This document shows positions 1 to 63,765 of a stretch of 64,000 nucleotides of DNA, piece by piece (the stretch's first letter is position 1; each line of letters starts with the position of its first letter). The position numbers were made by a program, and so were the translations under genes. The notes under the pieces were generated by a model, which saw only the letters and a program-made list of their open reading frames with translations, was not told the DNA's origin and ran no database searches. Location of the stretch: contig NZ_LR134173.1 in assembly GCF_900635815.1 (NCBI RefSeq), positions 1,091,501 through 1,155,500 of the forward strand, in the 5' to 3' direction. This DNA comes from Legionella cherrii (GTDB taxonomy: Bacteria; Pseudomonadota; Gammaproteobacteria; Legionellales; Legionellaceae).

Positions 1-1292
1 TCCATATCAACCACATAGCCATTAATCCAAGTATTTAACTCACGTTCTATATCATCACGTTCTTTCGCTAGACCAATTTTTTCACGTTGTATCACTTTCA
101 AATAATGAGCAAGTCTGCAAATGATAAACATATAAGGAAACTGAGTTCCTAATCTATAATTGGTTTGAGCTGTTTTACCTTCAGGGGTATCTGGAAAATG
201 TTTCGCTTTTTGGATTGAGTTTGCTGAGAAAAACGCAGCATTATCTGCCCCTTTACGCATCGTGAGTGGAATAAATCCTTGCTCCGATAACTCATATTCA
301 CGACGTTCGGAAATGAGTAATTCAGTAGGGATTTTAGTTTGAATTTCACCCATTGCCTCAAAAAAATAAGAAGGTAAGTTTTCAACCGCCCCACCGCCTT
401 GAGGACCAATAATGTTGACGCACCAACGATATTTGGCAAAACTTTGAGATAAGCATCCAGCAAAAGCAAAAGCACTATTTCCCCATGAAAAAGCATTTTC
501 GCCAGAACTTACATCCTCCTCATAATTGAATGAACGAACTCCATAAGTGTCTTTACCGTAGGGCATTCGTAACATAAACCGTGGTAATACCAGGCCTATA
601 TATCGTGAATCTTCAGATTCCCGTAAACTGTGCCAAGGGATGTACACAGGGCTTTCAAATATTGCTTCGATGTCATTCAAATGAGGTAATTCAGACATTG
701 ATTTGATATTGAAAAATTCAGGACTCGCTGCGGCTATGAAAGGCACATGGGCCATCGCACAAACAGCTGCGATATTTCTGAGCAGCGTGACATCTTTATA
801 ACTTGGAGTAAATGAGTAATTACCAATGATGGCACCATAAGGTCTACCACCAAATTGTCCGTATTCTTTCGTATAAACCTGTTTATACAAGCCTGATTTA
901 GGAATTTCAGGTGCATCAATAAAGTCATCAAACAGTTCATCTTTTGATACATGAATGAATTCAATCAAACTGTTTTCACGGAAATCGGTACGGTCCACCA
1001 AATATTTTAAACTGCGCCATGCGGATTCGAGTTTTTGAAACTCAGAATTATGGAGGATTTCATCCATTTGTACCGAGAGCTGCTTATCCAATATTGCAAT
1101 CACGTCATCCACTAGAGCAGGGGTTACCGTTTCATCGGTGCGTTTGTTTTCAATAATATTATCTATAAAAGCAAGCAAGCCTTTCTGGGTGAGGGCATAT
1201 TGCTCTTCATCCTCAGTAATATTGGTTCCTGCAAATAACTCCTTCAGTGCTTTTTCTTCTTTTTTCTTAGCATTATCTTGTGCATCAGCCAT
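1..1292 (-). CDS. tssC: Type VI secretion contractile sheath large subunit TssC (VipB/EvpB), 3' end outside window
   Basis: TssC pairs with TssB to form the cytoplasmic contractile sheath that propels the Hcp tube and VgrG spike. About 430 codons are visible from an ATG at 1292 with GGAG just upstream. The frame stays open to the window edge, so roughly the last 60-70 residues of a usual ~495-residue TssC are missing. Family hallmarks read directly: an N-terminal AWRSLKYLV segment, then FIDAPEIPKSGLY, FGGRPYGAIIGNY and FGVRSFNYEE-like stretches (here YGVRSFNYEE), followed by the typical AKYRWCVNIIGPQGGGAVE region. It lies 34 bp downstream of tssB in the same direction, so the two are almost certainly co-transcribed. 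No frameshift is seen. Identification is secure. Confidence 0.95.
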   Translation of the reverse strand, partial: MADAQDNAKKKEEKALKELFAGTNITEDEEQYALTQKGLLAFIDNIIENKRTDETVTPALVDDVIAILDKQLSVQMDEILHNSEFQKLESAWRSLKYLVDRTDFRENSLIEFIHVSKDELFDDFIDAPEIPKSGLYKQVYTKEYGQFGGRPYGAIIGNYSFTPSYKDVTLLRNIAAVCAMAHVPFIAAASPEFFNIKSMSELPHLNDIEAIFESPVYIPWHSLRESEDSRYIGLVLPRFMLRMPYGKDTYGVRSFNYEEDVSSGENAFSWGNSAFAFAGCLSQSFAKYRWCVNIIGPQGGGAVENLPSYFFEAMGEIQTKIPTELLISERREYELSEQGFIPLTMRKGADNAAFFSANSIQKAKHFPDTPEGKTAQTNYRLGTQFPYMFIICRLAHYLKVIQREKIGLAKERDDIERELNTWINGYVVDM

Positions 1293-1326
1293 GGCTGTCT
1301 CCTTGATCCGGCGGCTCTATTTGGGC

Positions 1327-1815
1327 TTATTTTTTGTCCTTAATTTCCTTGATAAGTTCTTCGCGTGCCGCAGAATCTTTAACAATAGCATCCAGTCTGC
1401 GTCGAAACTCCGGAATATTTCCCAGTGGGCCCTTTAGTGCTTTTAATGCTTCTCGTACCTCAAATAGTTTTTGTAACTGTGGGACTTGATGTAAGATTCC
1501 ATCAGGATCAAAGTCTCTCATTGTTTCAAATTTTAAATCAATGCTTACGGTATCATCTTTATTTTTGCTAAAACGATTTGGTACGCGTAGTGATAATTTA
1601 ATGTGATGTTCTTTGAGCACATCATTAAAATTGTCTTTGTTAATATTTACGGTTCGACGCTTTTCTAAAGGAGTATTGTCTCCTCCAGGATAGAACTCAC
1701 CGAGAACGAGTTGTCGTAGAGGAAGTTCAATCTCTTCCTCAACTCCTTCTATCAGCGCTTTATAAACAATATTAATACGTTCCTTTGGAGCGACAGATTG
1801 TTCCTTGTTCGTCAT
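1327..1815 (-). CDS. tssB: Type VI secretion sheath small subunit TssB (VipA)
   Basis: TssB heterodimerises with TssC to build the T6SS sheath. The protein has 162 residues, close to the usual ~165. It has the expected opening with KERINIVYKA, the conserved ELPLRQLVLGEF segment, LEKRRTVNINKDNF (residues ~50-63), and the C-terminal LKALKGPLGNIPEFRRRLD region that binds TssC. The ATG at 1815 has AAGGA a few bases upstream. It sits between vgrG (219 bp upstream) and tssC (34 bp downstream). The relatively long gap to vgrG contains a repeat-like segment, so tssBC may have its own promoter. Confidence 0.95.
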   Translation of the reverse strand: MTNKEQSVAPKERINIVYKALIEGVEEEIELPLRQLVLGEFYPGGDNTPLEKRRTVNINKDNFNDVLKEHHIKLSLRVPNRFSKNKDDTVSIDLKFETMRDFDPDGILHQVPQLQKLFEVREALKALKGPLGNIPEFRRRLDAIVKDSAAREELIKEIKDKK

Positions 1816-1929
1816 TTTTTATCCTTAATAAACCGAATTCATTATAATAAAAAATCCTGTAATAATAAAAAATTAGCATATATTTCAAGATTTACAAAAT
1901 TATTCCAGAAACAATTTTGTTCCTTTATC

Positions 1930-2015
1930 TCGAGGGGAGCGGGGGAACCCCATCGGAACGCAGAGCGATGGTATGGAGAGCCTTCGCTGAACTCGGGATC
2001 ACGGGGTATAAAACC
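1930..2015. repeat. Degenerate intergenic repeat between vgrG and tssB
   Basis: GC-rich island in an AT-rich gap. It contains GCAGAGCGATGG and ATGGAGAGCC, which recur (the first in inverse complement) near 17520-17545 in the gap upstream of the LysR gene terminus. It looks like a decayed member of a dispersed non-coding repeat family. No transposase or clear terminal repeats are seen. Confidence 0.35.
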
Positions 2016-2033
2016 TAATCCTAATTATTGGAT

Positions 2034-4430
2034 TTATTCTTTTGATTCTTCAATATAACCTGGGGTATGAATTGTGGGGCCTAATACGTGCCCTGTATCG
2101 GCCAGATCCACTGCCTTTCCCGCTTTTGCCAAAACAGCATTAGTAACTGATTCCTTGGCTTTACTCAGCTGATTGACCAAAGTTGCTCCTGCCTCTGCAG
2201 CTGCTTCCAACCCAGGAATCTCTTCTTTAGCTGCAACCCAGGCTGCAGCTGCGGATGCTTTAAGCGTTGCTGTTAAACCGGTAGCCATTACCAATTCCTC
2301 TTCAACAATAGCCTCAGCTAGTGCTGCCGCTGCCGCTGCTGCTTCCCCAGCACCAGGACCGAGTTCTGCCGTGGGTCCTCCAGACATCTCGCCTGATATA
2401 TTGACAATGGCGCTTGCCAAATTGATTGTTGGCGCAGCTAAGGTTATTGTTGATTCTGCTACAAACTCAAGTGCCGGTGCTTGTAAGGTAATTGCACCAT
2501 CGGTAATGGTAAGGGAACTGGTACCTACCGTCAGGGAAATGCTTGCTTCGGCTTCCAACATCACAACAGGGGCTGTTTTCAAACTCGTCGAGCTGTCTTC
2601 TTCGTAGCGCCAACCACTCGTGAGTTTCACTTGAAATCCAGATGTTACGTCAATCGTGGCACCTGTTCGTTCTATAAAATCAAGTCCCAAGACGGATTGG
2701 GCTCGTGCACCATAATAAACGTAATAAGCGGCTCCTTTATTCGAATAAGAAGTAACACCCCAGACATCAGTGAAGTTGTTACCTCCAATATTCTGCGCCT
2801 GATGTCCGGATATGTCACTTATAGAGTTTTTTTCAATTCGTTGATAGGCATTACTTTTAGTATTAAGAAAAAAACCTGCATCAAGTTGTGATTCAAATAC
2901 ATTATCGGTCCCCAGAGTGAGCGTGGTCTCATTATGAGGTGTTGACAGTTGTATCCCTTTGGTATCGCCATCTTGTTCGTTAATAAAGAACAGATTTTCT
3001 TCTTTAGTATAGAGCCCCATATAATTTTGATTTTTTGAGGTAATGACGTTTCGATGCGTGGAATTACTCACTGTACCCAGTAAGATCGGTAGATCAGGAT
3101 TACCAAATTGAAAACCGATTAATACTTCATCGCCTTTACGAAGTGGCAGGCTGAATGCGTATTGGTCGCCAATATAGGATTCCATTTTGCGCACCCATCC
3201 CGATCCTTTCCCTGGCTTGTCATCACTAATGGCAATTCGAAATTTGTAGAATCCTTTTTTGCTGATTTGGACGGTATTATCATCGCCCTCATGATCGACA
3301 AAACCGGGCAACATGCCATTGATGCGCGGAGTACGATCTTGGATGGTCTGTCTGTAGGCGATGGATTTATTGATCGCTTTATACTCACATTTAAAATAAT
3401 CTTCAGGGTGGTGTTCCTCGCCACTGTGAAGTGATGCAAAGGAGCGCTTTTGCGAGCCATGATAAGTACTTTCAACAATCAACATCGGACAATTTAATGA
3501 AGCCACTTTGAAATTTTTATGGTGAATTATTGTTCCTGGATTAATGAAAGATCCTGAAGAAATTCCCGTTAAAATTTCTTTTTTCCATTGATAACTTTCG
3601 CTAATAAATTTCGCTAATTGCTGATTCTCCTTATTGCTTTTGATGTTCTCTGCCCAATACATTATTTCGCCGTGGCCCATTGCATCAATAATCGCGCTCG
3701 AAGAATAGGGTTTTGATGATTGATCTGAATTATAAGCTTTAACTGTGACTTTGTGTGGCTGTGCCTCGGTAGTCAATTGAAAATTGTATAACAAATTTGC
3801 GGTAGGGTTATTTTGACTGGCCATAGTATAAGACTGGTAATACATTTCATGGATGTCTTGATTATTCTTTAAAGTAGAATTGGCATCCGTTATGACCAGC
3901 TTTTCCTCGTTTTTATCCTGGCTAAAATAATAAAATAATCCTTCAAACTCCATCCAGCGGGTAATAAAATCCCAATTGATTTCATTGTATTGAAAAATAA
4001 ACTCTCTGGGTTTATGTTCCATTATCAAGTCGAGTTCGACTTGTGTCATTCCATTTTTATTTAATATGTGTTTAATGACTTGAGGTATTGATTTATTAAG
4101 AAATACCTCTGTATTACGGATGTGTTGTAGACGATGAACTTTAGGCATGAATTGAATTTTATAGCGGTGATACTTATCGTAATTATCAAGTTGAGTAAAA
4201 GATACAACCTCACCATTCAACGGAGTTGTCCCGCCCCCTTTTTTAGCAAAGCTTAATTGCACTTTTTGACTCATGACTTGTTGCGCATGAATGGGGGTTT
4301 TGCTCACAAACTCAACGGTAAAGCGATATAATGAGGAAATAGCCAGGGTACCTGCAAATTCGATGACAATGATTTCTGACTGAGCGCCGCCTGGAATTTG
4401 TAATTTGGGCATCAATACCTTGGCTTGCAT
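2034..4430 (-). CDS. vgrG: T6SS spike protein VgrG (TssI) with Ala-rich C-terminal extension
   Basis: VgrG trimers form the puncturing spike at the tip of the T6SS tube. The 798-residue protein shows a gp27-like N-terminal part (to ~400, with REFIFQYNEINWDFITRWMEFEGLFYYF at ~147-174), a gp5-like OB domain (~405-490, PGFVDHEGDD, GSGWVRKMESYIGDQYAFSLPLRKGDEVLIGF), and a gp5 beta-helix with acidic/threonine-rich repeats to ~665. The remaining ~130 residues are unusual: alanine- and glutamate-rich helix with a run of seven alanines, ending in GPTIHTPGYIEESKE. The start ATG has AGGAG upstream. The tail has no recognised toxin motif, so it may be an adaptor segment for the PAAR-like protein or cargo. 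Transcription is divergent from the DUF2169 operon. Confidence 0.95.
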   Translation of the reverse strand: MQAKVLMPKLQIPGGAQSEIIVIEFAGTLAISSLYRFTVEFVSKTPIHAQQVMSQKVQLSFAKKGGGTTPLNGEVVSFTQLDNYDKYHRYKIQFMPKVHRLQHIRNTEVFLNKSIPQVIKHILNKNGMTQVELDLIMEHKPREFIFQYNEINWDFITRWMEFEGLFYYFSQDKNEEKLVITDANSTLKNNQDIHEMYYQSYTMASQNNPTANLLYNFQLTTEAQPHKVTVKAYNSDQSSKPYSSSAIIDAMGHGEIMYWAENIKSNKENQQLAKFISESYQWKKEILTGISSGSFINPGTIIHHKNFKVASLNCPMLIVESTYHGSQKRSFASLHSGEEHHPEDYFKCEYKAINKSIAYRQTIQDRTPRINGMLPGFVDHEGDDNTVQISKKGFYKFRIAISDDKPGKGSGWVRKMESYIGDQYAFSLPLRKGDEVLIGFQFGNPDLPILLGTVSNSTHRNVITSKNQNYMGLYTKEENLFFINEQDGDTKGIQLSTPHNETTLTLGTDNVFESQLDAGFFLNTKSNAYQRIEKNSISDISGHQAQNIGGNNFTDVWGVTSYSNKGAAYYVYYGARAQSVLGLDFIERTGATIDVTSGFQVKLTSGWRYEEDSSTSLKTAPVVMLEAEASISLTVGTSSLTITDGAITLQAPALEFVAESTITLAAPTINLASAIVNISGEMSGGPTAELGPGAGEAAAAAAALAEAIVEEELVMATGLTATLKASAAAAWVAAKEEIPGLEAAAEAGATLVNQLSKAKESVTNAVLAKAGKAVDLADTGHVLGPTIHTPGYIEESKE

Positions 4431-4720
4431 GGAGACTCCTGTTGCCTTGATTGTTACGGTATATGAAAAACATCCTGTTCTAAAAAGAATGAGGTTTTTG
4501 CACTATAAGTGGATGCATTGACAATAACGAAGGATTCTCATTCATGTCAAGGCAGATCAGTATGCTTGCCCCGGAAGGACAGGCATTTAGAGCAAAATGT
4601 ATAACCGCCTGATATAGATTATTAAAATCTCTTGTGTATCTCATTGACAACCATTAGTACATCACGCATATTGTCAGCAACTCTCGAAGTTGATTGTTGC
4701 ATTAGGACTATTCTTCAAAG

Positions 4721-7387
4721 ATGAAGATATTTAAAGAAAAATCACACACCGTAATCACCTTCAATTACCGACATCAGGGCAAATCAAAATTAGCCATTAC
4801 GATCATGGCCATGTTTTCTTTCGCAAAGCAAAATCAATTCCTCAGTTATGCTGATTTTTGGCGTGTCGCCAAAAAAACTTTTAATTTTAATCAAGGCGAA
4901 TTTATTGATTTGCATATGGCAAAGCAAAGAGCGGAATTTTTGGTTAAAGGCTCTTGCTACAGCTATGATAGTGAAACTCGCCAAAGTTTTGTGAAAATCA
5001 TATTAGATAATCTGGAAAAACAACTTACTGTATGGGGCGACAGACGATGGATAAAAGACGATACACGCTACCATTTATCTCAACCTAATACCTTCGACAA
5101 AATACCGATTACTTTAAACAATGCTTATGGTGGTATTGGTCATGCACTCAATCCTGATGGGAGAGGACTCGCGCCTATGGATTTGATTACTGACATCAAT
5201 TTGCCTAATGTGGAATTACCTGGGCAATCGATAAAACAGCCAACCGATACCCCTGTGCCTGCATTATTATTGCCTCACTCACCAACCTGCACGCAACAAC
5301 TGAGCAAATTCGGAACGATTGATAACGATTGGCTACGCAATGAAAGTCCTTACTATCCCCAAGATATTGATTGGCTCTATTTTAATCTCGCCCCAGCAGA
5401 TCAACAAAGAGAACATTTTTTTAAAGGGGATGAGACGTTTTCGTGTATCCATATGCATCCCGAGAAAAAAATCATCAATGGTCAATTGCCTGGGGTGCGC
5501 CTACGCTGTTTTTATAAACGGATTGGTAGCATCGACCGCCTGAGCGAACTCAATGTGAATCTGGATACCCTCTGGCTACTGCCTGATCAAGAAAAAGGAA
5601 TACTTATTTGGCATGGCATCATCGATACACAAGATATTGCTGCTAATGATATTGAGTTTATTTATAGTGCAAATGAAATTTTGGCCGAAGCACCTAAGGA
5701 TATCGATTTTTATGCGAACCTGCGCAGCAAACCTAAAGAGGCAATTCCAAGAAAAGCACGCAGCGATTCCAGTACTACGAATCAATCCTCTCTGAGGGGG
5801 ATGGGTTTTAATTTAGAGGCGGAAATAAATGAAATAGCAGAGCATTGGTTTCCAGAAAGGAAAAAATTTTTGGAGCAAAACGAAGCGCTCAAGATATTTC
5901 AGGGAAAAACGCCGGCAGAGTCTTTAATGGCAATAGAGCGCTATTATAAAAATCGCAACCAAGCATTTCCAGCACACGCTTCAGTTAAAAATATTCTCAG
6001 GACCGAAGCACAGACTGAAAACAGGCCTTATGGAGGGAATCGACACGGGCGTCAGTTTCTGGACTTTCTTAAAAAACAGATTACGAATAGAACCTCCTCA
6101 ACATCATCACCCTCCGAAGCGTTGGGTCGGATTGAAAAGTTGGAACAACAGATTGAATACCTGGATAAACTCAGTGCGATAACTCAATTTCGATCAGGGG
6201 CACCTGGAAAATCAACACATTCACGCGAGGAAGTTGTGGCGGGTTTTAAACAGGGAAAAAATTTTTCTGGAGAAAATTTGGCAGGGATTGATTTATCCGA
6301 TTTGGATTTATCAGGGATTAATTTATCCGGGTGTAATTTAAGCGAATGTAATTTGACCCGTACCCGATTAACTCAAGCCAATTTATCGATGGCAACATTA
6401 TTCCATGCTAATTTATCTGAGACACACTTGGCTAATGCCAATTTAATCCACGTGTTAATAAAAAATGCTTCTTTAGATGGAGCAAATTTTTCAGAATGTG
6501 CTCTGCAACATGCATTGATTGAAGACTGTTCCGGTAAAAAATGTAACTTCGCAAATGCTATTTTAAATCAAGTACATTTTAAGAAATGCCATTTGAGTAA
6601 GGGACACTTTGTTGGCATAAAAGCTAATTTTCTTGATATTGTAGACAGTACATTTGAGGAGAGTGATTTTTCTGAAGCGAGAATGCAATTTGCGAACGTT
6701 CATCAAGGGAGTTGGAGCACGATAAATTTCACCAAAGCAGATTTGTCTCGCGCGCTTTTTGCAGGCATTCAATTATCCGAGGTGGTCGGGAATAATTTAA
6801 GCGCCCCCCATCTCTCGCTAACTAATTGTTCTATTGAGAAGCTCGTTTTGAATAACAGTCAGTGTGAGCGCCTTAGTTGTAAAGGGTCAACCATTTCTGA
6901 GAGTACTTTTTCTTGTAGTGCATTAACCGGATTCAATTTGCTGAACGCCAAAGTGGCACAAAGCCGTTTCATCAATTGCAACCTGACTCAAATTCGTGGC
7001 AATGAACTGACCAAAATATCAACGAGTCATTTTGAACAGTGCAATCTGAGCAATTCGGCATTACTCGGCGGTCATTATGAAGAGCTTGCTTTGAGTGATT
7101 CCACCCTGGATGCATCTCAGCTGGTGAAAAACTCCTGGAAAAAAGCCAGTTTCCGCAAATGCAGTGCAAAAAAATTCAGGTTTGTGAATTCAAACATTGA
7201 TTCGTGTTCGTTCCAAGACATCAATTTCTTTCAAGGTATATTCCATAGCTCAACTTTTGAAAATACTGAATTTAATCATTGTAATTTATACAGTATTGCG
7301 TTCACCGATTGCCAAAGAAAGGAGGTAACAATTCAGGATTGCCTCGTGAAAAATATTGCTTTGCATGAGGAGGAGCAGTCCTCATGA
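4721..7387 (+). CDS. DUF2169 domain protein with C-terminal pentapeptide repeats (T6SS accessory)
   Basis: The 888-residue protein has two parts. Residues ~30-330 match DUF2169: a KGSCYSY segment, VWGDRRW, NAYGGIGHALNPDGRG and LPNVELPG, all typical of this family. A charged linker (~335-500) leads into pentapeptide repeats from ~510 to ~880, with repeated A/S-N-L-S/T-x and NFS/DLS units that would form a right-handed beta-helix. DUF2169 proteins sit beside VgrG and PAAR-like genes and are thought to help load spike tips or effectors. The stop codon overlaps the start of the next gene (ATGA), implying translational coupling. The ribosome site before the chosen ATG is weak, so the exact start is uncertain. 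Confidence 0.85.
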   Translation: MKIFKEKSHTVITFNYRHQGKSKLAITIMAMFSFAKQNQFLSYADFWRVAKKTFNFNQGEFIDLHMAKQRAEFLVKGSCYSYDSETRQSFVKIILDNLEKQLTVWGDRRWIKDDTRYHLSQPNTFDKIPITLNNAYGGIGHALNPDGRGLAPMDLITDINLPNVELPGQSIKQPTDTPVPALLLPHSPTCTQQLSKFGTIDNDWLRNESPYYPQDIDWLYFNLAPADQQREHFFKGDETFSCIHMHPEKKIINGQLPGVRLRCFYKRIGSIDRLSELNVNLDTLWLLPDQEKGILIWHGIIDTQDIAANDIEFIYSANEILAEAPKDIDFYANLRSKPKEAIPRKARSDSSTTNQSSLRGMGFNLEAEINEIAEHWFPERKKFLEQNEALKIFQGKTPAESLMAIERYYKNRNQAFPAHASVKNILRTEAQTENRPYGGNRHGRQFLDFLKKQITNRTSSTSSPSEALGRIEKLEQQIEYLDKLSAITQFRSGAPGKSTHSREEVVAGFKQGKNFSGENLAGIDLSDLDLSGINLSGCNLSECNLTRTRLTQANLSMATLFHANLSETHLANANLIHVLIKNASLDGANFSECALQHALIEDCSGKKCNFANAILNQVHFKKCHLSKGHFVGIKANFLDIVDSTFEESDFSEARMQFANVHQGSWSTINFTKADLSRALFAGIQLSEVVGNNLSAPHLSLTNCSIEKLVLNNSQCERLSCKGSTISESTFSCSALTGFNLLNAKVAQSRFINCNLTQIRGNELTKISTSHFEQCNLSNSALLGGHYEELALSDSTLDASQLVKNSWKKASFRKCSAKKFRFVNSNIDSCSFQDINFFQGIFHSSTFENTEFNHCNLYSIAFTDCQRKEVTIQDCLVKNIALHEEEQSS

Positions 7388-54508: not shown

Positions 54509-56116
54509 TCAGAGCGAATAACTTAAAGTTGTCTTTGCATCTAAAATCAGTTCTTGTTCCAACGGATGAGCTTTACCCGAAGCAGTCAATAAGCCATTTT
54601 TGGCTAGCCCCTGCATGACCACCTGATCGCTTGCAGGTTGTTGCCAAACTGGAATCGCAACAGGCTTTTGTACGAGTACGGTTGGTGGTTGAGGTATCGG
54701 TTTTCTCCCTGGATTGAGTTCACTTTCTTCCGCTTCCAACAACTTAAGTTGCTCGGCAGTAAGTGGTTTGACTTGGCTGCTGTAGAAGGGGAGTACGCGA
54801 AGTTTGAACACTAATGAAAATGCCTCCAGTGTACTGCTTAATTCAGTATATCCATGACTCAAGGGATCATTAAAGGTTCTCTTTAATTGAGACGGAGATA
54901 AGATATCAATGTGATTGAGATCGGTACGATAATAAATTTTTTGATCTTTACCTAATAGAAGCAGTGGTTGGGGTTGGCGATAGTGATAATCAACATCCGG
55001 CATTTGTTCTAGGCCACCGTATTGTGTTTGCCCAGGAAGTTCATGGCCTTTAAATACCTGACGTAGATCTTGCAATGAACACGTCATTCCCGCCAAACAG
55101 GCTTGCTTATTAAAATAATTATTTGCAACATCAAAATCATCATCGCCACCAGCTTCGACAGGGGGCTCGCTGCTATCGGGAGTTGGATCATAGGCGCGTT
55201 TGGTGTACACGGTTACCCGGTTTAACTCATCGTGTAAATTATTGACTAAAATACTGCCCCAAACTCCGAAACGTTTTGGAAGTAAGTCACGTAAGTCACC
55301 CACGAAAGCAATATGGCCTGCAGCAAAGTGATCGGTATAATAGTGGAAACAAAAAAATTCCATTCCCAAAGCCAAAGCCTGATAGCGATAGGCCATATCT
55401 TGCAAGGTATCACGATTTAAGCCCTCAGGTGTCTGCTCGATAATCTTGAGTAATGCATTGAAGTCGCTATTATCTGATTGATAATCTGAATCAGCCAGCA
55501 ATTGAGTTAGCTCATAGTAAATGCGGGCATATCGAAGCGCTAGATGATGGCCTATAGTGTATACACGCACTGACCATGGAGTAAAATGGGATAAATTTCT
55601 ATTCAAAATTTCACTATAATTTTTTACCCTCAGGGCAAACATCAGTTGTTGTACATAGAAATTGAGCGTACTTGAAAATGGGATGTAGTTGGCATTATTT
55701 ATTTTATAAATAGTATCTATATCACTTTGATGTACGTTGTCGTTTGCCAGACGTTTATAAGAGCAAATTAATTTTTGCTCCTCGCTTTCGTTAACCGGCT
55801 CTTTAATTAAATATTGTCCTAATGTCTCACAAGAGCCTGTACTATCATACCTTTCGGGATTTGCATTATATTCAGCAATACTTGGCAAATTAAGCGATAC
55901 CTCTCGACCACCAAAATAGTCTCCAGACATGGCCACAATGTTGCCTGGTGAGAGATTTAATCCAATAGATTGGGGAAGGCCAAGCTCGTTAAACCCTTGC
56001 ACCTGTAGATGTAAGCCCCCTTGCTCATCAATATCGACATAGGGATTTTTTTTTAAGACCTCCCAATCTAGAAAACGTAATGCATCGCCCAGTTCCGTAT
56101 GTTCTTTTGTATTCAT
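54509..56116 (-). CDS. Phospholipase C-like metalloenzyme homologue (paralogue of 62125-63765)
   Basis: A 535-residue protein from ATG 56116 (GGAG 7 bp upstream). It aligns with the protein encoded at 62125-63765: both have SGDYF / AGDYY, the HFTPWSVRVYTIGHHLAL / HFAPWSLRGYIVGHQSAL segment, HYYTDHFAAGH / HFYSDHFAGGH, FGVWGSILVNNLHDE / FGVLGSILVNTMHNE, YGGLEQMPDVDYHYRQPQPLLL, and closing PFYSSQV / PFYYSPQV. The regularly placed His and Asp residues resemble the zinc sites of Legionella/Pseudomonas phospholipases C (PlcA-C), which share a D-x-F-x-x-G-H motif. No signal peptide, so an effector is possible. Function assignment is inferred. Confidence 0.6.
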   Translation of the reverse strand: MNTKEHTELGDALRFLDWEVLKKNPYVDIDEQGGLHLQVQGFNELGLPQSIGLNLSPGNIVAMSGDYFGGREVSLNLPSIAEYNANPERYDSTGSCETLGQYLIKEPVNESEEQKLICSYKRLANDNVHQSDIDTIYKINNANYIPFSSTLNFYVQQLMFALRVKNYSEILNRNLSHFTPWSVRVYTIGHHLALRYARIYYELTQLLADSDYQSDNSDFNALLKIIEQTPEGLNRDTLQDMAYRYQALALGMEFFCFHYYTDHFAAGHIAFVGDLRDLLPKRFGVWGSILVNNLHDELNRVTVYTKRAYDPTPDSSEPPVEAGGDDDFDVANNYFNKQACLAGMTCSLQDLRQVFKGHELPGQTQYGGLEQMPDVDYHYRQPQPLLLLGKDQKIYYRTDLNHIDILSPSQLKRTFNDPLSHGYTELSSTLEAFSLVFKLRVLPFYSSQVKPLTAEQLKLLEAEESELNPGRKPIPQPPTVLVQKPVAIPVWQQPASDQVVMQGLAKNGLLTASGKAHPLEQELILDAKTTLSYSL

Positions 56117-56360
56117 AAGCAAGCTCCATTTTTCTTATTTTGAGTACACTCCGAAAATTATTAATTACTTAATGCTATGCCAGCATGATGTTCAGTAATA
56201 AGGGGCAAAAATTTAACTATAGAAGTGAACTATAAAATCTTCAAATAATCTAAGACTCACTGGCAAGAAAATGAATTCGCGATGCTTTAAATATGGATTT
56301 TCTTCCTTGAGCGAGGAGGCTTTTTCACTTCTATAATTAAAAAAAGAGCCGCTTGAGATA

Positions 56361-57454: not shown

Positions 57455-57496
57455 TTATTTTCGATAATTTACAAATTTTCGAAAATAATTAATACT
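57455..57496 (+). promoter_or_regulatory. Promoter with tandem palindromes upstream of the GntR operon
   Basis: ATTTTCGATAAT (57457-57468) and the perfect 12-bp palindrome ATTTTCGAAAAT (57475-57486) are centred 18 bp apart; the outer arms TTATTTTCGA / TCGAAAATAA also form a 10-bp inverted repeat. TTTACA (57468-57473) and AATACT (57491-57496) form a -35/-10 pair with a 17-bp spacer. The second palindrome lies inside the spacer, an ideal place for repression, presumably by the GntR protein encoded just downstream. Confidence 0.6.
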
Positions 57497-57526: not shown

Positions 57527-58216
57527 ATGTCTCACATTAAAACCAAAAAATCCAAGACAAGCTCCGTATTGGAAAAGTTACGCCATGACCTCATCAGTGG
57601 TTATTTTGACCCTGGTCAAAAATTACAAATGGAACACTTAAAAGAACGGTATGGGGTGGGATATAGTCCCTTACGTGAAGCCTTATCGCGATTGGTCTCT
57701 CATGGATTGGTCAACCTTGAGGATTTATGTGGCTTTTCTGTTCCTCCTTTATCTTTAGAAGAGTTATATGATCTTTATGCAGTCAGAATTCAGATTGAAA
57801 CACGTGCTCTAGAGTTAGCCATCCAATATGGAGATGCATATTGGGAGGCGGATGTTCTCGCCTGTTGGCATCGATACGCCCAATATCTTACCCCATCACC
57901 CAATAATCCATTGGATCCGGGGGAGTGGAATGCATTACAAAAGGAATTTACTTTTACGCTCATTAAAGCGTGTCAATCACCCTGGCTGCTCAAAATACAA
58001 AATATGTTGTACGACCATTCATCACGTTATCGTTTTCTATGTTTAGGACGCCATCATCAGGATGAAAAGGTACTCGCTGAATTCAGACAAGAAAATGAAG
58101 CGCTGGTCGCTGCGGTATTAGCACGAGATAAAGAAAAGGCGATTCAGATTTCGCAGGCTGGATGGGATAACTCAATCAAAATTATGGCAGACAGTTTAAA
58201 GGATAAAAAAAGCTAA
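57527..58216 (+). CDS. GntR-family transcriptional regulator (FCD type) of the cluster
   Basis: A 229-residue regulator. The winged HTH spans ~12-72 (EKLRHDLISGYFDPGQKLQMEHLKERYGVGYSPLREALSRL in pieces), with the GntR hallmark SPLREALSRLVSHGLV. The C-terminal FCD domain (~85-220) includes LYDLYAVRIQIETRALELAI and metal-ligand-type His residues (DHSSRYRFLCLGRHHQDEK). FCD regulators usually sense an organic acid or pathway intermediate. It starts 38 bp after a palindrome-bearing promoter and is 9 bp from the MetRS-like gene, so it is the first gene of the operon and probably autoregulated. Confidence 0.92.
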   Translation: MSHIKTKKSKTSSVLEKLRHDLISGYFDPGQKLQMEHLKERYGVGYSPLREALSRLVSHGLVNLEDLCGFSVPPLSLEELYDLYAVRIQIETRALELAIQYGDAYWEADVLACWHRYAQYLTPSPNNPLDPGEWNALQKEFTFTLIKACQSPWLLKIQNMLYDHSSRYRFLCLGRHHQDEKVLAEFRQENEALVAAVLARDKEKAIQISQAGWDNSIKIMADSLKDKKS

Positions 58217-58225
58217 GGATTCGCG

Positions 58226-59803
58226 ATGGCTAAGTATAAAAAAAATTATTTACTCATTCCTTCCGTACCTACGCCAAATGGGCGATTGCATTTGGGACAT
58301 ATTGGCGGTCCCTTTTTAAGTGTGGATATACTGGCACGCTACCTGCGTCTGCGTGGGCATTCGGCGTGGATAATCTCAGGGACTGACAGTTATGAGTCCT
58401 ACACAGCAGGAAAGGCAGAGGAAGAAGGCTTAACCCCTGAAGAAACAGGTAATCATTATCATGACTTAATTGCTCATGATTTAAAGTCCATGCATATCCA
58501 ATGCGATCAATTCGTTAATCCACTCGCCGAACCGTGGAACACATCTTATCACACATGGCATGAACAAATTATGCAACAATTATTGCACAATAAGGCAATG
58601 GTCTTATTAAAAGAGAAGATGCCTTGGGATCAAAAGAATCAGCGCTATCTGAACGGATATTGGCTCCAAGGCAATTGCCCGGTGTGTTTTGAAAAAACAG
58701 CAAGTTACTTTTGTGAATGTTGTGGGGCGCATTTTCGTCCCGAAGAAATGATTTGCGATACTCATTTAGGGCCAAGGGAAGTTGAAAATATATTTTTAGA
58801 GCTGCCAAAACACGTTGAACTGAATTCCAAAGGAATCAATAAAAACCTAGAAACATTGTTTCACCGTTATCAAATGTTGCAAAACAATCGATTTAGGCTC
58901 ACTACCCAGTGTAATTGGGGTTTAGCCGATAACACCGATAATACGGGTACGCGAACTTTGTTTAGTTACGGTTTTATATTTGCCTATTTTTTAATGTTTG
59001 GGGAAATCGCAGGAACACTCATGGGGAGCAACAAAAATGCATTTGCTGTTGATTCTGAGGTGATTACGATTTCCAGTTTTGGTATCGATAACGCGTTGCC
59101 CTTTTTAAGCAGTGCCTTAGGGATTAGTACCGCATGCCCGCAATACAAGCCCTTTGATTATTACCTGGTTAATTATTTTTATTATCTTGATGGCAGTAAA
59201 TTTTCAACAAGTCGCCAGCATATGATTGGTGTAGATGATGCCATTAATCAAAAGGGACTGTCCAGTGACCTTATTCGACTCTACCTTGCCTCGCTTGATG
59301 TACGTAATCAAACAGGAAATTTTGTCCTGGATGAGTTTATCCAATATTACAACAGGACCTTAGATTGGCTTGAGTGCTATGTCATGCGGGGAATACCCAA
59401 TATACCTGCAGTGATTACTTCCCCGTGTGAGGAGCGATTACAACATCAACTCCGTGATTTGTTTGCAATCCAAGAGGATGCCTTGCAACCTCATCATTTT
59501 TTGCCACATCTTGGGGTTCGTTCGCTCAGTGATTGGATGATACTGGGGCAAAATTTAGAACCAAATTCAAATGATTATTTTTGGTGGCTCAAAGGATTTA
59601 CTTTGGTGATTTATCCCTATATGCCGGAACTGGGTGGAAAAATTTGGAGTGCGCTCGGATATAAGCATTCCCCCGTTCAAACAGATTTTTTTGCTCAACC
59701 TGCTCGTCCATTGCAGAAGGAAATAAAACTCACTCTAAAACGAATTACTCATGAATTTGAATCGCATACTGAAGGATTAAGTTATGAACCCAACGCATCA
59801 TGA
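58226..59803 (+). CDS. Methionyl-tRNA synthetase-like enzyme, predicted hydrazine synthetase component
   Basis: A 525-residue class I aminoacyl-tRNA synthetase homologue. The signature HIGH is HLGH (22-25), the zinc-knuckle CPVC...CECC is retained (~150-172), and KMSKS is degenerate: KFSTS at 325-329. A C-terminal anticodon-like helical part is present but lacks clear tRNA-binding residues. Sitting next to a lysine N6-hydroxylase and a cupin, it matches the MetRS-like domain of Spb40-type enzymes (also in formycin, pyrazomycin and triacsin pathways), which activate N6-hydroxylysine as an ester before N-N bond formation. It overlaps the hydroxylase gene by 20 bp. A duplicate MetRS for translation or antibiotic resistance is less likely. 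Confidence 0.85.
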   Translation: MAKYKKNYLLIPSVPTPNGRLHLGHIGGPFLSVDILARYLRLRGHSAWIISGTDSYESYTAGKAEEEGLTPEETGNHYHDLIAHDLKSMHIQCDQFVNPLAEPWNTSYHTWHEQIMQQLLHNKAMVLLKEKMPWDQKNQRYLNGYWLQGNCPVCFEKTASYFCECCGAHFRPEEMICDTHLGPREVENIFLELPKHVELNSKGINKNLETLFHRYQMLQNNRFRLTTQCNWGLADNTDNTGTRTLFSYGFIFAYFLMFGEIAGTLMGSNKNAFAVDSEVITISSFGIDNALPFLSSALGISTACPQYKPFDYYLVNYFYYLDGSKFSTSRQHMIGVDDAINQKGLSSDLIRLYLASLDVRNQTGNFVLDEFIQYYNRTLDWLECYVMRGIPNIPAVITSPCEERLQHQLRDLFAIQEDALQPHHFLPHLGVRSLSDWMILGQNLEPNSNDYFWWLKGFTLVIYPYMPELGGKIWSALGYKHSPVQTDFFAQPARPLQKEIKLTLKRITHEFESHTEGLSYEPNAS

Positions 59804-61106
59804 TGAGCTGTTTGATTTATTAGGAGTAGGCGTTGGCCCTTTTAATTTGAGTATCGCTGCTCTTTTATCGTCTGTTGAAGAAATTTCCAGTGTTTTTTTT
59901 GAACAAAACGAAGAGATGATTTGGCATCCGGGGATGTTATTTCCTAATGCCGAAATCCAAGTCAGTTACTTAAATGATTTAGTGACACTCGTTGAGCCTA
60001 CTAATCCCTATTCATTTATTGCCTATCTGGCACAGCACAAACGATTGTATCGTTTTATCAATGCCCAATTCAAAAATGTATTACGCGCTGAATTTAGCCA
60101 TTATTTACATTGGGTGAGCCGGTCTTTACCCAATTTACTTTTTAAAGAAAAAGTTGAGGATATTTATTTTGATAAAACCCATTTTGTCATGCACACCACA
60201 AAGAGGAAAACTAAAGGAACGCATCTTGTTTTAGGCAACGGTTTAAGCGCGAAAATTCCTGCCTGCGCCAGACCTTATTTGAGTAAGAATGTGTTTCATA
60301 ATCAGGGCTTCTTGCTCAATCCGATAAATTGGCAAGGAAAAAAAGTGGCACTTATTGGTGGAGGGCAAAGTGGCGCCGAAATCGTCCACTATATTTTATC
60401 TCATGGTGAGCAATTACCTTCAGAATTAAATTGGATTTCAAAAAGACATCAGTTATTGCCTATGGATACTTCGCCTTTTGTAAGTGAGTTTTTCACACCG
60501 AAATATGCTGAGTATTTCTTCCATTTACCCGAGAAAGAAAAAGAGTTTTTATTACAAGAGCAGCACTTGGCGAGTGACGGTATTTCTTTTCATTTGTTAC
60601 AAACCATCTATCAAAAACTGTATAGTCTGGAATTTTTGGAGCATAAGGATAAATTTTTTAAGTTTTTATCACGGCATGAATTAACTCATATGGACAGCGA
60701 ATTAGGGAGATATCAACTCCTGCTGACGGAACTTGGCACCGCAAAAAAAAGCATAATTTCTGCGGATATTGTGATTTTGTGCACGGGGTATCAATGGGAG
60801 TTTCCTTCTTATCTTTCTTCATTAGCTGAAAAAATACCTTTAAATGAGGAGGGAAGGTTTTGTGTCAATCAGGATTTTTCCATCACTTGGGAGGGACCGA
60901 AACAACATCGTATTTATGTCCAAAATGCAGCACGCCATTCCCATGGAATTGCGGATCCCAATTTAAACGTTATGGCATGGCGAAGTGCAACGATTATCAA
61001 CAGCATAGCGCAAGCGCAAATTTATGATCTCAATCATGAGAACACCTTTTTAGATTGGGAGCGAGAGTTCGTACCTGAGGAGCGAAAATATGCCTTGTTT
61101 GCTTGA
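59784..61106 (+). CDS. Lysine N6-hydroxylase-like flavin monooxygenase
   Basis: A 440-residue N-hydroxylating monooxygenase of the IucD/PvdA family. Motifs: FAD-binding GVGVGPFN (14-21), the WHPGMLFPNAEIQVSYLNDLVTLVEPTNPYSF substrate region (in part, ~47-77), NADPH-binding IGGGQSGAE (~190-198), MDTSPFVSEFFTP, and the ATGY-like CTGYQWE (~330-336). It should convert L-lysine (or ornithine) to the N-hydroxy amino acid. No IucA/IucC siderophore synthetase or NRPS is nearby, so a siderophore is less likely than hydrazine formation with the flanking MetRS-like and cupin genes. It overlaps both neighbours. Confidence 0.9.
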   Translation: MNPTHHDELFDLLGVGVGPFNLSIAALLSSVEEISSVFFEQNEEMIWHPGMLFPNAEIQVSYLNDLVTLVEPTNPYSFIAYLAQHKRLYRFINAQFKNVLRAEFSHYLHWVSRSLPNLLFKEKVEDIYFDKTHFVMHTTKRKTKGTHLVLGNGLSAKIPACARPYLSKNVFHNQGFLLNPINWQGKKVALIGGGQSGAEIVHYILSHGEQLPSELNWISKRHQLLPMDTSPFVSEFFTPKYAEYFFHLPEKEKEFLLQEQHLASDGISFHLLQTIYQKLYSLEFLEHKDKFFKFLSRHELTHMDSELGRYQLLLTELGTAKKSIISADIVILCTGYQWEFPSYLSSLAEKIPLNEEGRFCVNQDFSITWEGPKQHRIYVQNAARHSHGIADPNLNVMAWRSATIINSIAQAQIYDLNHENTFLDWEREFVPEERKYALFA

Positions 61107-61440
61107 GTCTGGAGTTGTAACCAATCCAAGATTGTTTTTTTCTGCTTCAGAATATCTTGCTCCCGGGATTGTAGTAAACCCTGTTGATTTTGTAACAAAT
61201 CAGGCTTGTCCTCCCGTTCAAGTCACTTATTTTCAAGTATTGCCGCATTGTGAAACGCCAATCGATTGTCACCAGGAAGAAGAAATTTGGATAGTATTAA
61301 ATGGGAGTGGTATTTTGACTTATGAGGGGGATGTTTATGGAGTTAATGCTGAAGATATTTTTTACTTTGCATCTTTTAAATCGCATCAAATACGTAACCA
61401 CAGCCAACAGCCTCTGCACATCTGCTCTGTTTATTGGTAG
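61090..61440 (+). CDS. Stand-alone cupin, predicted N-N bond-forming component
   Basis: A 116-residue single-domain cupin. Motif 1 is CHQEEEIWIVLNGSG (60-74), with metal-ligand candidates His61 and Glu65, and motif 2 is FASFKSHQIRNHS (93-105) with His99. It overlaps the hydroxylase gene by 17 bp and precedes the GNAT gene by 30 bp. In Spb40-type hydrazine synthetases a cupin domain is joined to the MetRS-like domain and catalyses attack of glycine nitrogen on the hydroxylamine nitrogen of the ester; here it is separate. A general small-molecule cupin is the alternative reading. Confidence 0.85.
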   Translation: MPCLLESGVVTNPRLFFSASEYLAPGIVVNPVDFVTNQACPPVQVTYFQVLPHCETPIDCHQEEEIWIVLNGSGILTYEGDVYGVNAEDIFYFASFKSHQIRNHSQQPLHICSVYW

Positions 61441-61470
61441 GGGATTGTGGTGGGCGCAAGGGGAGTTTGA

Positions 61471-61935
61471 ATGAAGAACTATGAGGTCAGGTGGTTACAG
61501 CCTGATGACAAAGAAAATTGGTTAAGGATGTGGCAGGAGTATATGGAATTTTATGACACATCGTTACCTTCCGAGGTAGTGGATAATACACTGCGTACCT
61601 TACTTTCTGATAACCAAAACTCAGGTTGTCTTGTTGCTTGCGATTCCCCTGATTTAGCGGTTGGTTTTTTAACTTTTATCGTACATCAGAGTACTTGGGC
61701 TATAGAGCCAGAATGTTATTTACATGATTTATACGTGAAACCGGAATATCGAAAAACAGGGGCGGCCAAAAAACTCATGGATGAGTTAAAACAACTGAGC
61801 GTCCTAAGGCACTGGAGTCGAGTATATTGGCTCACCAGGCCCGATAATCGGGTGGCTCAATCTCTTTACGATAAAATGGGAAAAGGCGAATCCTGGATGG
61901 TTTATACCCTATTTCATCGCACTTCAAATAAGTAA
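61471..61935 (+). CDS. GNAT-family N-acetyltransferase of the cluster
   Basis: A 154-residue acetyltransferase with the acetyl-CoA motif A: LHDLYVKPEYRKTGAAKKLMDEL (in part; R-x-x-G-x-A at ~98-103) and a GNAT-like C-terminus (YWLTRPDNRVAQSLYDKMG). A ribosome site AAGGGGAG sits upstream. As the last gene of the operon, it could acetylate the hydrazino product or confer self-protection; both are inference. Confidence 0.85.
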   Translation: MKNYEVRWLQPDDKENWLRMWQEYMEFYDTSLPSEVVDNTLRTLLSDNQNSGCLVACDSPDLAVGFLTFIVHQSTWAIEPECYLHDLYVKPEYRKTGAAKKLMDELKQLSVLRHWSRVYWLTRPDNRVAQSLYDKMGKGESWMVYTLFHRTSNK

Positions 61936-62124: not shown

Positions 62125-63765
62125 ATGGAAACCAACGAACATAAAAATGCTGGCGATCAAATACGCATTCAAACATTAGGCAATCGTTATCTGAAAGGTA
62201 GTAAGAATTTATCCCCAGAAAATACCAATAATTTGCGTCTTAAAATGATGCAGGAAGTTGATGGAATCCCTGTGCCGCTTGAAATGAAGTTAAGCGCTGG
62301 GGATATCGTTGCTTTAGCTGGTGATTATTATACAAAAGCAGGCTGGTGGGAACAATTACAAATTCCTGCAAAAACCGGAGATGGTACTCAAGAAAATGAG
62401 CGATTACTCCACACTCCGGTGATGCAAGCCGAAACCGATGCGTTCAAGCAAGCCTTTGATGATTTAGCCTCACCCGCTGTAACAAAAAGCGCGATCAGCC
62501 GAATTTTCGCTATCGATGGATCACGCTTTATTCCCAGCTTATTGAAACAATTAATTTATGCAGTCACTGTAAAAGAGTACGGAGCAAAATTAGCAAGCAA
62601 CGAGGATCATTTTGCTCCCTGGTCATTGCGTGGGTATATTGTGGGCCATCAATCTGCCTTGGATATGGCGGAGACAGCCTATTATTGTCATCAAATTGCT
62701 GAAGGGAAAATGAGTAAAGAGGATAAAAAAATTCCTCAAGAAATTCGGGATCGATTAGCGAAAATACTCCAGCAAATCGCAATAGATCCTGCAAAATATA
62801 AACTGGTCCCTGAATCAAAAGAAGGAAAGTTAACCGAGAAAGAACTGTTTACGGAACTGGGCCATCGTTTTCATGCTATGGCAGTGGCTCGTGATTTATT
62901 TGCAATGCATTTTTATTCGGATCATTTTGCTGGAGGCCATTTGAGCCGCATGGGCGAAATGAGAAAGCTTCTTCCAAAAGAGTTCGGTGTATTGGGCAGT
63001 ATCCTCGTTAATACCATGCATAATGAAGACAATAAAGACAGCGTTGCCGTTACCAATTCTTTTCAGCCTTTAAGTAGAGAGCAAGACATGATCAAGGAGG
63101 ATAGCCAGGCTTATGGTGATGGAACTTATTTTAATCATGAGAATGATGCAAACGCGAACATGCTGATCAATGGGATGGATAATTCCTTGGGAGATATTGC
63201 GCGTTTAATGAAAACTGGTGAAAAGCGAGAATCTGTTGAGTACGGAGGTTTGGAATTTTTACCGCAAATCAATTACAAGGTATCTCAACCGCAACCTTTG
63301 TTGATTCAGGATCCCAATGATAAAAAAATTTATTTTCGTTCCGATGTGAAGCACATTAAGATGTTATCCCCCAATGAATATACGGAGACAACCAAAAATC
63401 CAAGCCTTCATGGATATCAAGAACTGACCCCCACGAAAGCCTTCTGGCTGGTTGTGAAACTTTGGTTGTTTCCGTTTTATTATTCACCTCAAGTTGAATT
63501 AAGTAAAAAAGAACAAGCAAAAATTCGTGATGTTGAACAAGAGAATGAGTCTGAGAACCGTCAAACTGACGTGCAGCAATCTAAATTGAGCCCAAACCCT
63601 ATTCCGCAAAGCGAGAGCCATTTGTCCATGATGGGCAAATGGCGTAAAACGACCACTTCCCATTCAATTGCAAAACTAAGTTTCTTAGCCGGACCTCAAA
63701 AAGGAAATCCTGAGGAAACAATTAGCCCTGAAAATGGCGCGGTTTATTCCCAAATCAATCATTGA
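62125..63765 (+). CDS. Phospholipase C-like metalloenzyme homologue (paralogue of 54509-56116), candidate effector
   Basis: A 546-residue protein. Conserved segments shared with its paralogue: LSAGDIVALAGDYY (~58-71), EDHFAPWSLRGYIVGHQSALDMA (in part, ~155-177), AMHFYSDHFAGGHLSRMGEMR (in part, ~264-283), SILVNTMHNEDN (~295-306), YGGLEFLPQINYKVSQPQPLL (in part) and LWLFPFYYSPQV (~453-464). The pattern of GDYY, W-S, H-x3-A, DHFxxGH and HNED resembles zinc phospholipases C, giving a tentative role. No signal peptide; a PmrA-like box upstream supports an effector rather than a periplasmic enzyme. The C-terminal ~60 residues are polar and variable. Confidence 0.6.
   Translation: METNEHKNAGDQIRIQTLGNRYLKGSKNLSPENTNNLRLKMMQEVDGIPVPLEMKLSAGDIVALAGDYYTKAGWWEQLQIPAKTGDGTQENERLLHTPVMQAETDAFKQAFDDLASPAVTKSAISRIFAIDGSRFIPSLLKQLIYAVTVKEYGAKLASNEDHFAPWSLRGYIVGHQSALDMAETAYYCHQIAEGKMSKEDKKIPQEIRDRLAKILQQIAIDPAKYKLVPESKEGKLTEKELFTELGHRFHAMAVARDLFAMHFYSDHFAGGHLSRMGEMRKLLPKEFGVLGSILVNTMHNEDNKDSVAVTNSFQPLSREQDMIKEDSQAYGDGTYFNHENDANANMLINGMDNSLGDIARLMKTGEKRESVEYGGLEFLPQINYKVSQPQPLLIQDPNDKKIYFRSDVKHIKMLSPNEYTETTKNPSLHGYQELTPTKAFWLVVKLWLFPFYYSPQVELSKKEQAKIRDVEQENESENRQTDVQQSKLSPNPIPQSESHLSMMGKWRKTTTSHSIAKLSFLAGPQKGNPEETISPENGAVYSQINH

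What the first reader, a model, noticed from the sequence alone, without database searches (positions are those of the whole stretch)
57527..61935. Candidate hydrazine (N-N bond) biosynthesis operon in a Legionella-like genome
Five tightly spaced genes encode a GntR regulator, MetRS-like enzyme, lysine N6-hydroxylase, cupin and GNAT. The hydroxylase, cupin and MetRS-like combination is the established machinery for hydrazine formation from N6-hydroxylysine and glycine (Spb38/Spb40 type; also in formycin, pyrazomycin and triacsin pathways). No siderophore synthetase or NRPS is near. The expected product would be a lysine-glycine hydrazine or an acetylated derivative. I know of no such cluster characterised in Legionella.
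Basis: partly seen in the sequence, partly recalled or inferred. Interest (0 to 1): 0.93.

Follow-up and report, generated by a model that had tools for sequence, protein, structure and literature searches.

The report
Compact hydrazine-making operon in Legionella
A five-gene switch-controlled operon in a Legionella genome carries all the parts of a known enzyme pair that joins two nitrogen atoms, so the bacterium probably makes a small hydrazine compound, although which one is not yet known.

The parts
57457..57489 (.). Candidate GntR operator, ATTTTCGATAATTTACAAATTTTCGAAAATAAT; core 57458-57485
   Evidence: One match in the window, 0 in 100 shuffles. Present once in each of 15 of 15 operon loci, 36-45 bp before the gntR start in 14 of them and overlapping my mechanical start in L045, and in the G081 remnant. 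Only site in the genome; the backwards control pattern gave 1 match
57468..57496 (+). Candidate promoter TTTACA-17-AATACT overlapping the operator
   Evidence: by itself no better than shuffles (13 found, 16.3 expected). Its place on the conserved block is the only support
57527..58216 (+). GntR/FCD transcriptional regulator (nearest model CsiR, below its cut-off)
   Evidence: Pfam PF00392, PF07729; CsiR 154 bits against cut-off 218
58226..59803 (+). MetRS-like ligase half of a hydrazine synthetase; HLGH (22-25), KFSTS (325-329), cysteines 151/154/163/166, Asp54
59784..61106 (+). Flavin-dependent N-hydroxylase grouping with IucD and several hydrazine-cluster hydroxylases; Asn64 where Lys/Orn enzymes have the carboxylate-binding Lys
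61090..61440 (+). Stand-alone cupin, N-N-forming half; Asp59, His61, Glu65, His99 align with RHS1 Asp63, His65, Glu69, His103
   Evidence: RHS1 residues from PMC8664883
61471..61935 (+). GNAT acetyltransferase, nearest to Hpa2 and more weakly to thialysine N-epsilon- and diamine/polyamine acetyltransferases
   Evidence: present in 10 of 15 operon loci

Best explanation
A GntR-controlled operon encodes a flavin N-hydroxylase and a two-protein hydrazine synthetase. Inferred steps: (1) the hydroxylase turns a terminal amine of a lysine-like or diamine substrate into a hydroxylamine; (2) the MetRS-like protein adenylates an amino acid and esterifies it onto that hydroxylamine, without tRNA; (3) the zinc cupin rearranges the unstable O-acyl ester, breaking N-O and forming N-N, giving an internal hydrazine; (4) the GNAT acetylates an amine of the substrate or product; (5) GntR represses the operon by sitting on the palindrome over its promoter until a small-molecule signal releases it. 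No other biosynthetic gene is attached, so the hydrazine amino acid itself, or its acetyl form, is probably the released product. Steps 1-3 rest on homology to PyrN and RHS1, shown in vitro by others; steps 4-5 and the product are inference.
Against: No activity was shown for these proteins. Identity to PyrN is only 22%. In the MetRS-like tree, which does not hold PyrN, the RHS1-cluster and oxidase-linked fusion ligases fall on the other side of the midpoint root from the window clade, with the housekeeping MetRS among them on a very long branch; the tool calls such joins unsure, so monophyly of hydrazine synthetases is not shown. The GNAT is missing in 5 of 15 loci and stands alone in G088, so its role in the pathway is uncertain. 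The operon is reduced to a remnant in G081 and apparently lost in G088, so it is dispensable.
Confidence: 0.85

Rival explanations
1. One reading: lysine plus glycine by Spb38/Spb40 chemistry, giving N6-(carboxymethylamino)lysine, possibly acetylated.
For: The hydroxylase lies in the group that holds IucD and several hydrazine-cluster enzymes with the lysine-type residues (support 88/75, below the tool's star), apart from the diamine/histamine clade (100/99). Asp54, equivalent to MetRS Asp52, is kept as in the four fusion ligases compared and is lost in the RHS1-cluster Glu-type ligase; the PyrN alignment shows no Asp there either.
Against: The carboxylate-binding Lys is Asn in the window, in 11 of 11 window-genus carriers and in the 12 best homologues plus P0141 (13 of 120; 90 of 120 have Lys). 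Pocket columns read S-V-T-D-Y-I-F-F against T/A-P-T-D-W-M-A/S-F/Y in the four fusion ligases compared. No Spb39-like DAO gene in the operon.
Confidence: 0.3
2. Diamine variant: the hydroxylase uses cadaverine, putrescine or an acetylated diamine; the GNAT, of the thialysine/diamine acetyltransferase kind, acts on the same chain.
For: Loss of the carboxylate anchor. The top three solved relatives are diamine enzymes (229, 221, 213 bits against 154 for the lysine enzyme MbtG; 6xbb identified as a cadaverine enzyme). GNAT relatives include thialysine, polyamine and diamine acetyltransferases. A Robbsia plasmid operon joins a GNAT, DABA aminotransferase, DABA-decarboxylase-like gene, hydroxylase, MetRS-like and cupin. 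N-hydroxyputrescine and an N-hydroxydiamine called DAPN are reported hydrazine-synthetase substrates (PMC11705231, passages).
Against: The tree places the hydroxylase outside the diamine clade, and it lacks that clade's Leu/Gln and Tyr/Phe residues. IucD, a lysine enzyme absent from the solved-structure list, scores 298 bits by tblastn (a different scoring), so the solved-structure ranking may mislead. No decarboxylase in the operon.
Confidence: 0.3
3. Siderophore or hydroxamate pathway: hydroxylase plus GNAT make N-acetyl-N-hydroxylysine as in aerobactin.
For: IucD similarity (37.6%) and an adjacent GNAT.
Against: No IucA/IucC in the genome; no NRPS among thirteen neighbours scanned; strict link with MetRS-like and cupin in 15 of 15; the GNAT matches PF00583 and other GNAT models listed, none of them the IucB-type model as I recall it.
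Confidence: 0.04
4. Peptide-ligase reading of Iyer et al. 2010: methionine joined to a modified lysine, cupin as dioxygenase.
For: Same genes; proposed before the chemistry was known.
Against: Later biochemistry on PyrN/RHS1 shows tRNA-independent ester formation and N-N rearrangement (PMC8664883). Methionine-pocket residues of the housekeeping MetRS (Leu13, Tyr15, Trp253, Pro257; E. coli numbering and roles recalled) are replaced here.
Confidence: 0.04

Closest known systems
PyrN (pyrazomycin) and RHS1 with its MetRS-like partner (Rhodococcus): Glu-type hydrazine synthetases
   Different: 22% identity to PyrN; MetRS Asp52 equivalent kept here but absent in both; no saccharopine-dehydrogenase or other pathway genes attached
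Spb38/39/40 and Tri26-28 (hydrazinoacetic acid route)
   Same: Hydroxylase plus MetRS-like/cupin chemistry
   Different: No DAO-family oxidase (Spb39/Tri27); hydroxylase lacks the carboxylate Lys; pocket unlike that of the fusion ligases compared, three of which stand beside an FAD oxidoreductase. Spb and Tri sequences themselves were not compared
MtRS-paralogue/cupin/lysine N6-monooxygenase operons of Iyer et al. 2010
   Same: Same gene set, GNAT included; L. pneumophila named as a carrier
   Different: They inferred a methionine peptide ligase; this regulator, operator, pocket change and the losses were not in the section and passages read
Robbsia andropogonis plasmid p1 operon (L055)
   Same: MetRS-like (30% over 91% of the query), cupin, hydroxylase and a GNAT 30% identical
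   Different: Has its own diaminobutyrate aminotransferase and decarboxylase-like genes and a diamine-clade hydroxylase

Membership tests
MetRS-like/cupin hydrazine synthetase | Ligase nearer to PyrN than to MetRS | tested here: met
MetRS-like/cupin hydrazine synthetase | Intact adenylation motifs | tested here: met
   HLGH and KFSTS; H22, L23, G24, H25, K325, F326, S327 invariant in 40 sequences
MetRS-like/cupin hydrazine synthetase | Zinc cupin with the essential Glu | tested here: met
   Asp59, His61, Glu65, His99 aligned with RHS1; metal content not testable
MetRS-like/cupin hydrazine synthetase | Co-encoded amine N-hydroxylase | tested here: met
   15 of 15 loci
MetRS-like/cupin hydrazine synthetase | Ligase falls in one clade with all known hydrazine synthetases, apart from MetRS | tested here: inconclusive
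   Long branches; the housekeeping MetRS falls among other hydrazine-cluster ligases
MetRS-like/cupin hydrazine synthetase | Forms an N-N bond | not testable with these tools
   Needs an assay
Spb/Tri hydrazinoacetic-acid pathway | DAO-family cleaving oxidase in the cluster | tested here: not met
   Absent in the window operon. Of the genes after the cupin examined in the four GNAT-less distant loci's representatives, a DAO gene follows directly only in L046, L. beliardensis
Spb/Tri hydrazinoacetic-acid pathway | Glycine-type ligase pocket | tested here: inconclusive
   Differs from four fusion ligases, whose own specificity is inferred; the published eight-residue code was not available
Lysine N6-hydroxylase | Lys equivalent to SidA Lys107 that binds the substrate carboxylate | tested here: not met
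   Asn64; role of Lys107 from PMC7347517 and PMC8009421 (passages)
Diamine N-hydroxylase | Falls in the diamine clade with its Ala/Ser and Leu residues | tested here: not met
Housekeeping MetRS | Reaches the metG model cut-off | tested here: not met
   TIGR00398 112.9 bits against 336; it does pass NF008863 (664 against 551), a model named MetRS
Aerobactin-type siderophore operon | IucA/IucC synthetase | tested here: not met
   0 matches in the genome

The most novel reading that the evidence does not exclude
The window's genus has switched to a new hydrazine: its hydroxylase no longer needs a substrate carboxylate, a GNAT joined the operon in the same group, and with no downstream pathway the acetylated hydrazine itself is the end product, made on demand under a dedicated product- or precursor-sensing GntR switch.
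Probability: 0.3. Interest if true: 0.7.

Novelty: new member of a known kind. Interest (0 to 1): 0.5.

Why it matters
In the passages read of the review PMC11705231, hydrazine synthetases with a known product feed larger natural-product pathways. A self-contained, locally regulated four- to five-gene version in Legionella suggests the simple hydrazine is itself useful to the cell. It offers a small system in which hydroxylase pocket, ligase pocket and product could be linked, and a clear case of probable misannotation: these ligases are called methionine--tRNA ligase in databases.

Tried and rejected
Diamine reading from solved-structure ranking alone: the top hits are diamine enzymes, but IucD is not in that list and the tree puts the window protein outside the diamine clade; kept only as a rival. 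Hydrazine-cluster hydroxylases as one clade: not so; Robbsia's falls with diamine/histamine enzymes and G047's with PvdA/MbtG. Spb39-like oxidase: the DAO gene in L. beliardensis is only 23% identical to the Sinorhizobium cluster enzyme and reaches no curated NCBIfam cut-off, so orthology is not claimed. GNAT as a hydrazine-specific marker: it resembles the Robbsia GNAT (30%) and the G047 GNAT (29%), but GNATs in G003 and G015, which have no MetRS-like match at 1e-60, pass E 1e-15 and G047's does not, so the link is weak. Defence system: no PADLOC hit. Recent import by composition: GC is like the surroundings. Wider surveys at E 1e-40 found 1 further genome of 369 in the class sample and none besides the window's own of 398 in the phylum sample; such a cut-off misses distant hydrazine synthetases, as G047's (E 7e-26). 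The genome-contig scan with a single protein returned only 3 loci.

Full report
Observation. The window is part of a one-contig 3,729,541-base genome, in the same genus as L. steigerwaltii and Legionella sp. PATHC038.

The cupin. Its nearest solved protein is 5uqp. Zhao et al. 2021 (PMC8664883, whole Results section read) identify 5UQP as RHS1, show zinc-dependent N-N formation, and find Asp63, His65, Glu69 and His103 all needed. The window's Asp59, His61, Glu65 and His99 align with these. The same accession as RHS1, WP_007299751, stands in one cluster with a hydroxylase and a stand-alone MetRS-like gene on a Rhodococcus plasmid, the same division into separate proteins as here.

The hydroxylase. 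It falls with IucD and several hydrazine-cluster hydroxylases (25-row group, support 88/75) and apart from the diamine/histamine clade (100/99) and the PvdA/MbtG group (100/100). But the lysine that binds the substrate carboxylate (SidA Lys107; Lys107Ala is inactive: PMC7347517, PMC8009421, passages) is Asn64 here. Among the 120 best homologues, 90 have Lys, 13 Asn, 6 Gln, 4 Tyr, 3 Glu, 2 Arg, 1 Ser and 1 a gap. The 12 best, which include L. steigerwaltii, anisa, gormanii, bozemanae, gratiana, santicrucis, sainthelensi and an L. pneumophila cluster of 118 sequences, are all Asn. Read directly from the 15 operon loci, 11 of 11 of the window's genus have Asn, and the other four have Tyr, Lys, Lys, Lys. 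The SidA Asn293 equivalent is Ser in the window and 5 other loci, Asn in the rest. Lysine is therefore doubtful as the substrate, though the enzyme is not a typical diamine enzyme either.

The partner amino acid. At eight MetRS pocket columns the window reads S-V-T-D-Y-I-F-F. Four cupin-fused ligases of hydrazine clusters read T/A-P-T-D-W-M-A/S-F/Y, and the RHS1-cluster ligase reads S-N-T-A-A-L-A-Y. The Asp kept here is absent in the RHS1-cluster ligase and in the PyrN alignment, which argues weakly against glutamate. Glycine is possible but not shown. Column roles are recalled from E. coli MetRS.

Distribution. The MetRS-like gene occurs at E 1e-60 in 15 of 143 genomes of the family, window included. 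Hydroxylase orthologues of at least 58% identity occur in the same 15; two weak 28-29% hits lie elsewhere, one as a second copy in G054 and one in G047, where it belongs to a different, fusion-type hydrazine cluster. GntR, MetRS-like, hydroxylase and cupin keep their order in 15 of 15; GNAT follows in 10 of 15. The eleven carriers in the window's genus share one chromosomal neighbourhood; the four more distant ones lie in three others. G081 keeps only the operator and a MetRS fragment between the flanking genes; G088 has only the GNAT there, without operator. So the operon has decayed at least once, probably twice. dN/dS for the five genes in three species pairs is 0.09-0.28. GC content is like the surroundings.

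Control. A palindromic block, ATTTTCGA-14-TCGAAAAT in outline, lies before gntR in 15 of 15 loci, across different upstream contexts. In the window it spans 57457-57489 and overlaps a TTTACA-17-AATACT promoter-like pair (such pairs alone are no rarer than in shuffles). It has one match in the window and none in 100 shuffles, and is the only site in the genome, against one match for the backwards control pattern. In L045 the site overlaps my mechanical ORF start, so the true start there is probably further in. The simplest reading is autoregulation by the adjacent GntR.

The GNAT. Nearest solved relatives are Hpa2 (79 bits) and, more weakly, thialysine (48, 45), polyamine (33) and diamine (29) acetyltransferases. 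It may acetylate the chain end of a lysine-like or diamine compound. Within the operon carriers it is found only with Asn-type hydroxylases (10 of 11 against 0 of 4), but that may be one evolutionary event.

Literature. Iyer et al. 2010 (PMC2922099: section 6 read, other passages) described this MetRS paralogue, always with a cupin and a lysine N6-monooxygenase, several times with a GNAT, and named L. pneumophila as a carrier; they inferred a peptide ligase. The review PMC11705231 (passages) lists characterised hydrazine synthetases and has no occurrence of Legionella. The Spb38-40 steps are also summarised in PMC13274452 (passages). The survey of Legionella secondary metabolism PMC5126622 has no occurrence of hydrazine, hydroxylase, monooxygenase or tRNA synthetase (term search). 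No paper on hydrazine synthetases of Legionella appeared in the listings, which show at most 20 or 30 papers each (20 of 3,587); the library lacks most subscription papers.

Verdict. The enzymes are very likely a hydrazine synthetase with its hydroxylase (0.85). The product is open. It is a new member of a known kind with some unusual features.

Noticed in passing
window 54509-56122 (-) and 62125-63765 (+): Two distant paralogues (about 32% identical) with no Pfam match flank the operon; related copies are found near it in several Legionella.
   Followed up: partly
L085 5729-14737 (G047, another genus of the family): A second, richer hydrazine-synthetase cluster: GNAT-dehydrogenase fusion, hydroxylase, DAO oxidase, DHDPS-like, HMGL-like, HAD and a cupin-MetRS fusion.
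   Followed up: partly
L065 (G210 MAG) 942-5542: A PLP decarboxylase gene, nearest to FslC but below its cut-off, stands directly before MetRS-like, hydroxylase and cupin genes.
   Followed up: partly
L055 3935-10835 (Robbsia plasmid p1): Probable 1,3-diaminopropane hydrazine operon with its own diaminobutyrate aminotransferase and decarboxylase-like genes, with an IS6-family transposase gene just after it.
   Followed up: partly
L056 6694-10590 (Klebsiella plasmid pC240_3): A MetRS-like gene between a KamA radical SAM gene and an MFS transporter, with no annotated cupin or hydroxylase in the stretch.
   Followed up: no
L045 5870-6851 (-) (G124, probably L. hackeliae): Two overlapping reading frames after the cupin, the larger with a Pyr_redox_2 match and the smaller with a weak FAD-NAD(P)-binding match; they may be one split gene.
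   Followed up: no
NCBIfam NF008863 and NF008861: These models name hydrazine-synthetase ligases as methionine--tRNA ligase; probable systematic misannotation.
   Followed up: partly
L021 1150-2919 (G006): A 589-aa MetRS-like frame with the hydrazine-synthetase style PPTPNG and KFSTS motifs in another genus of the family.
   Followed up: no
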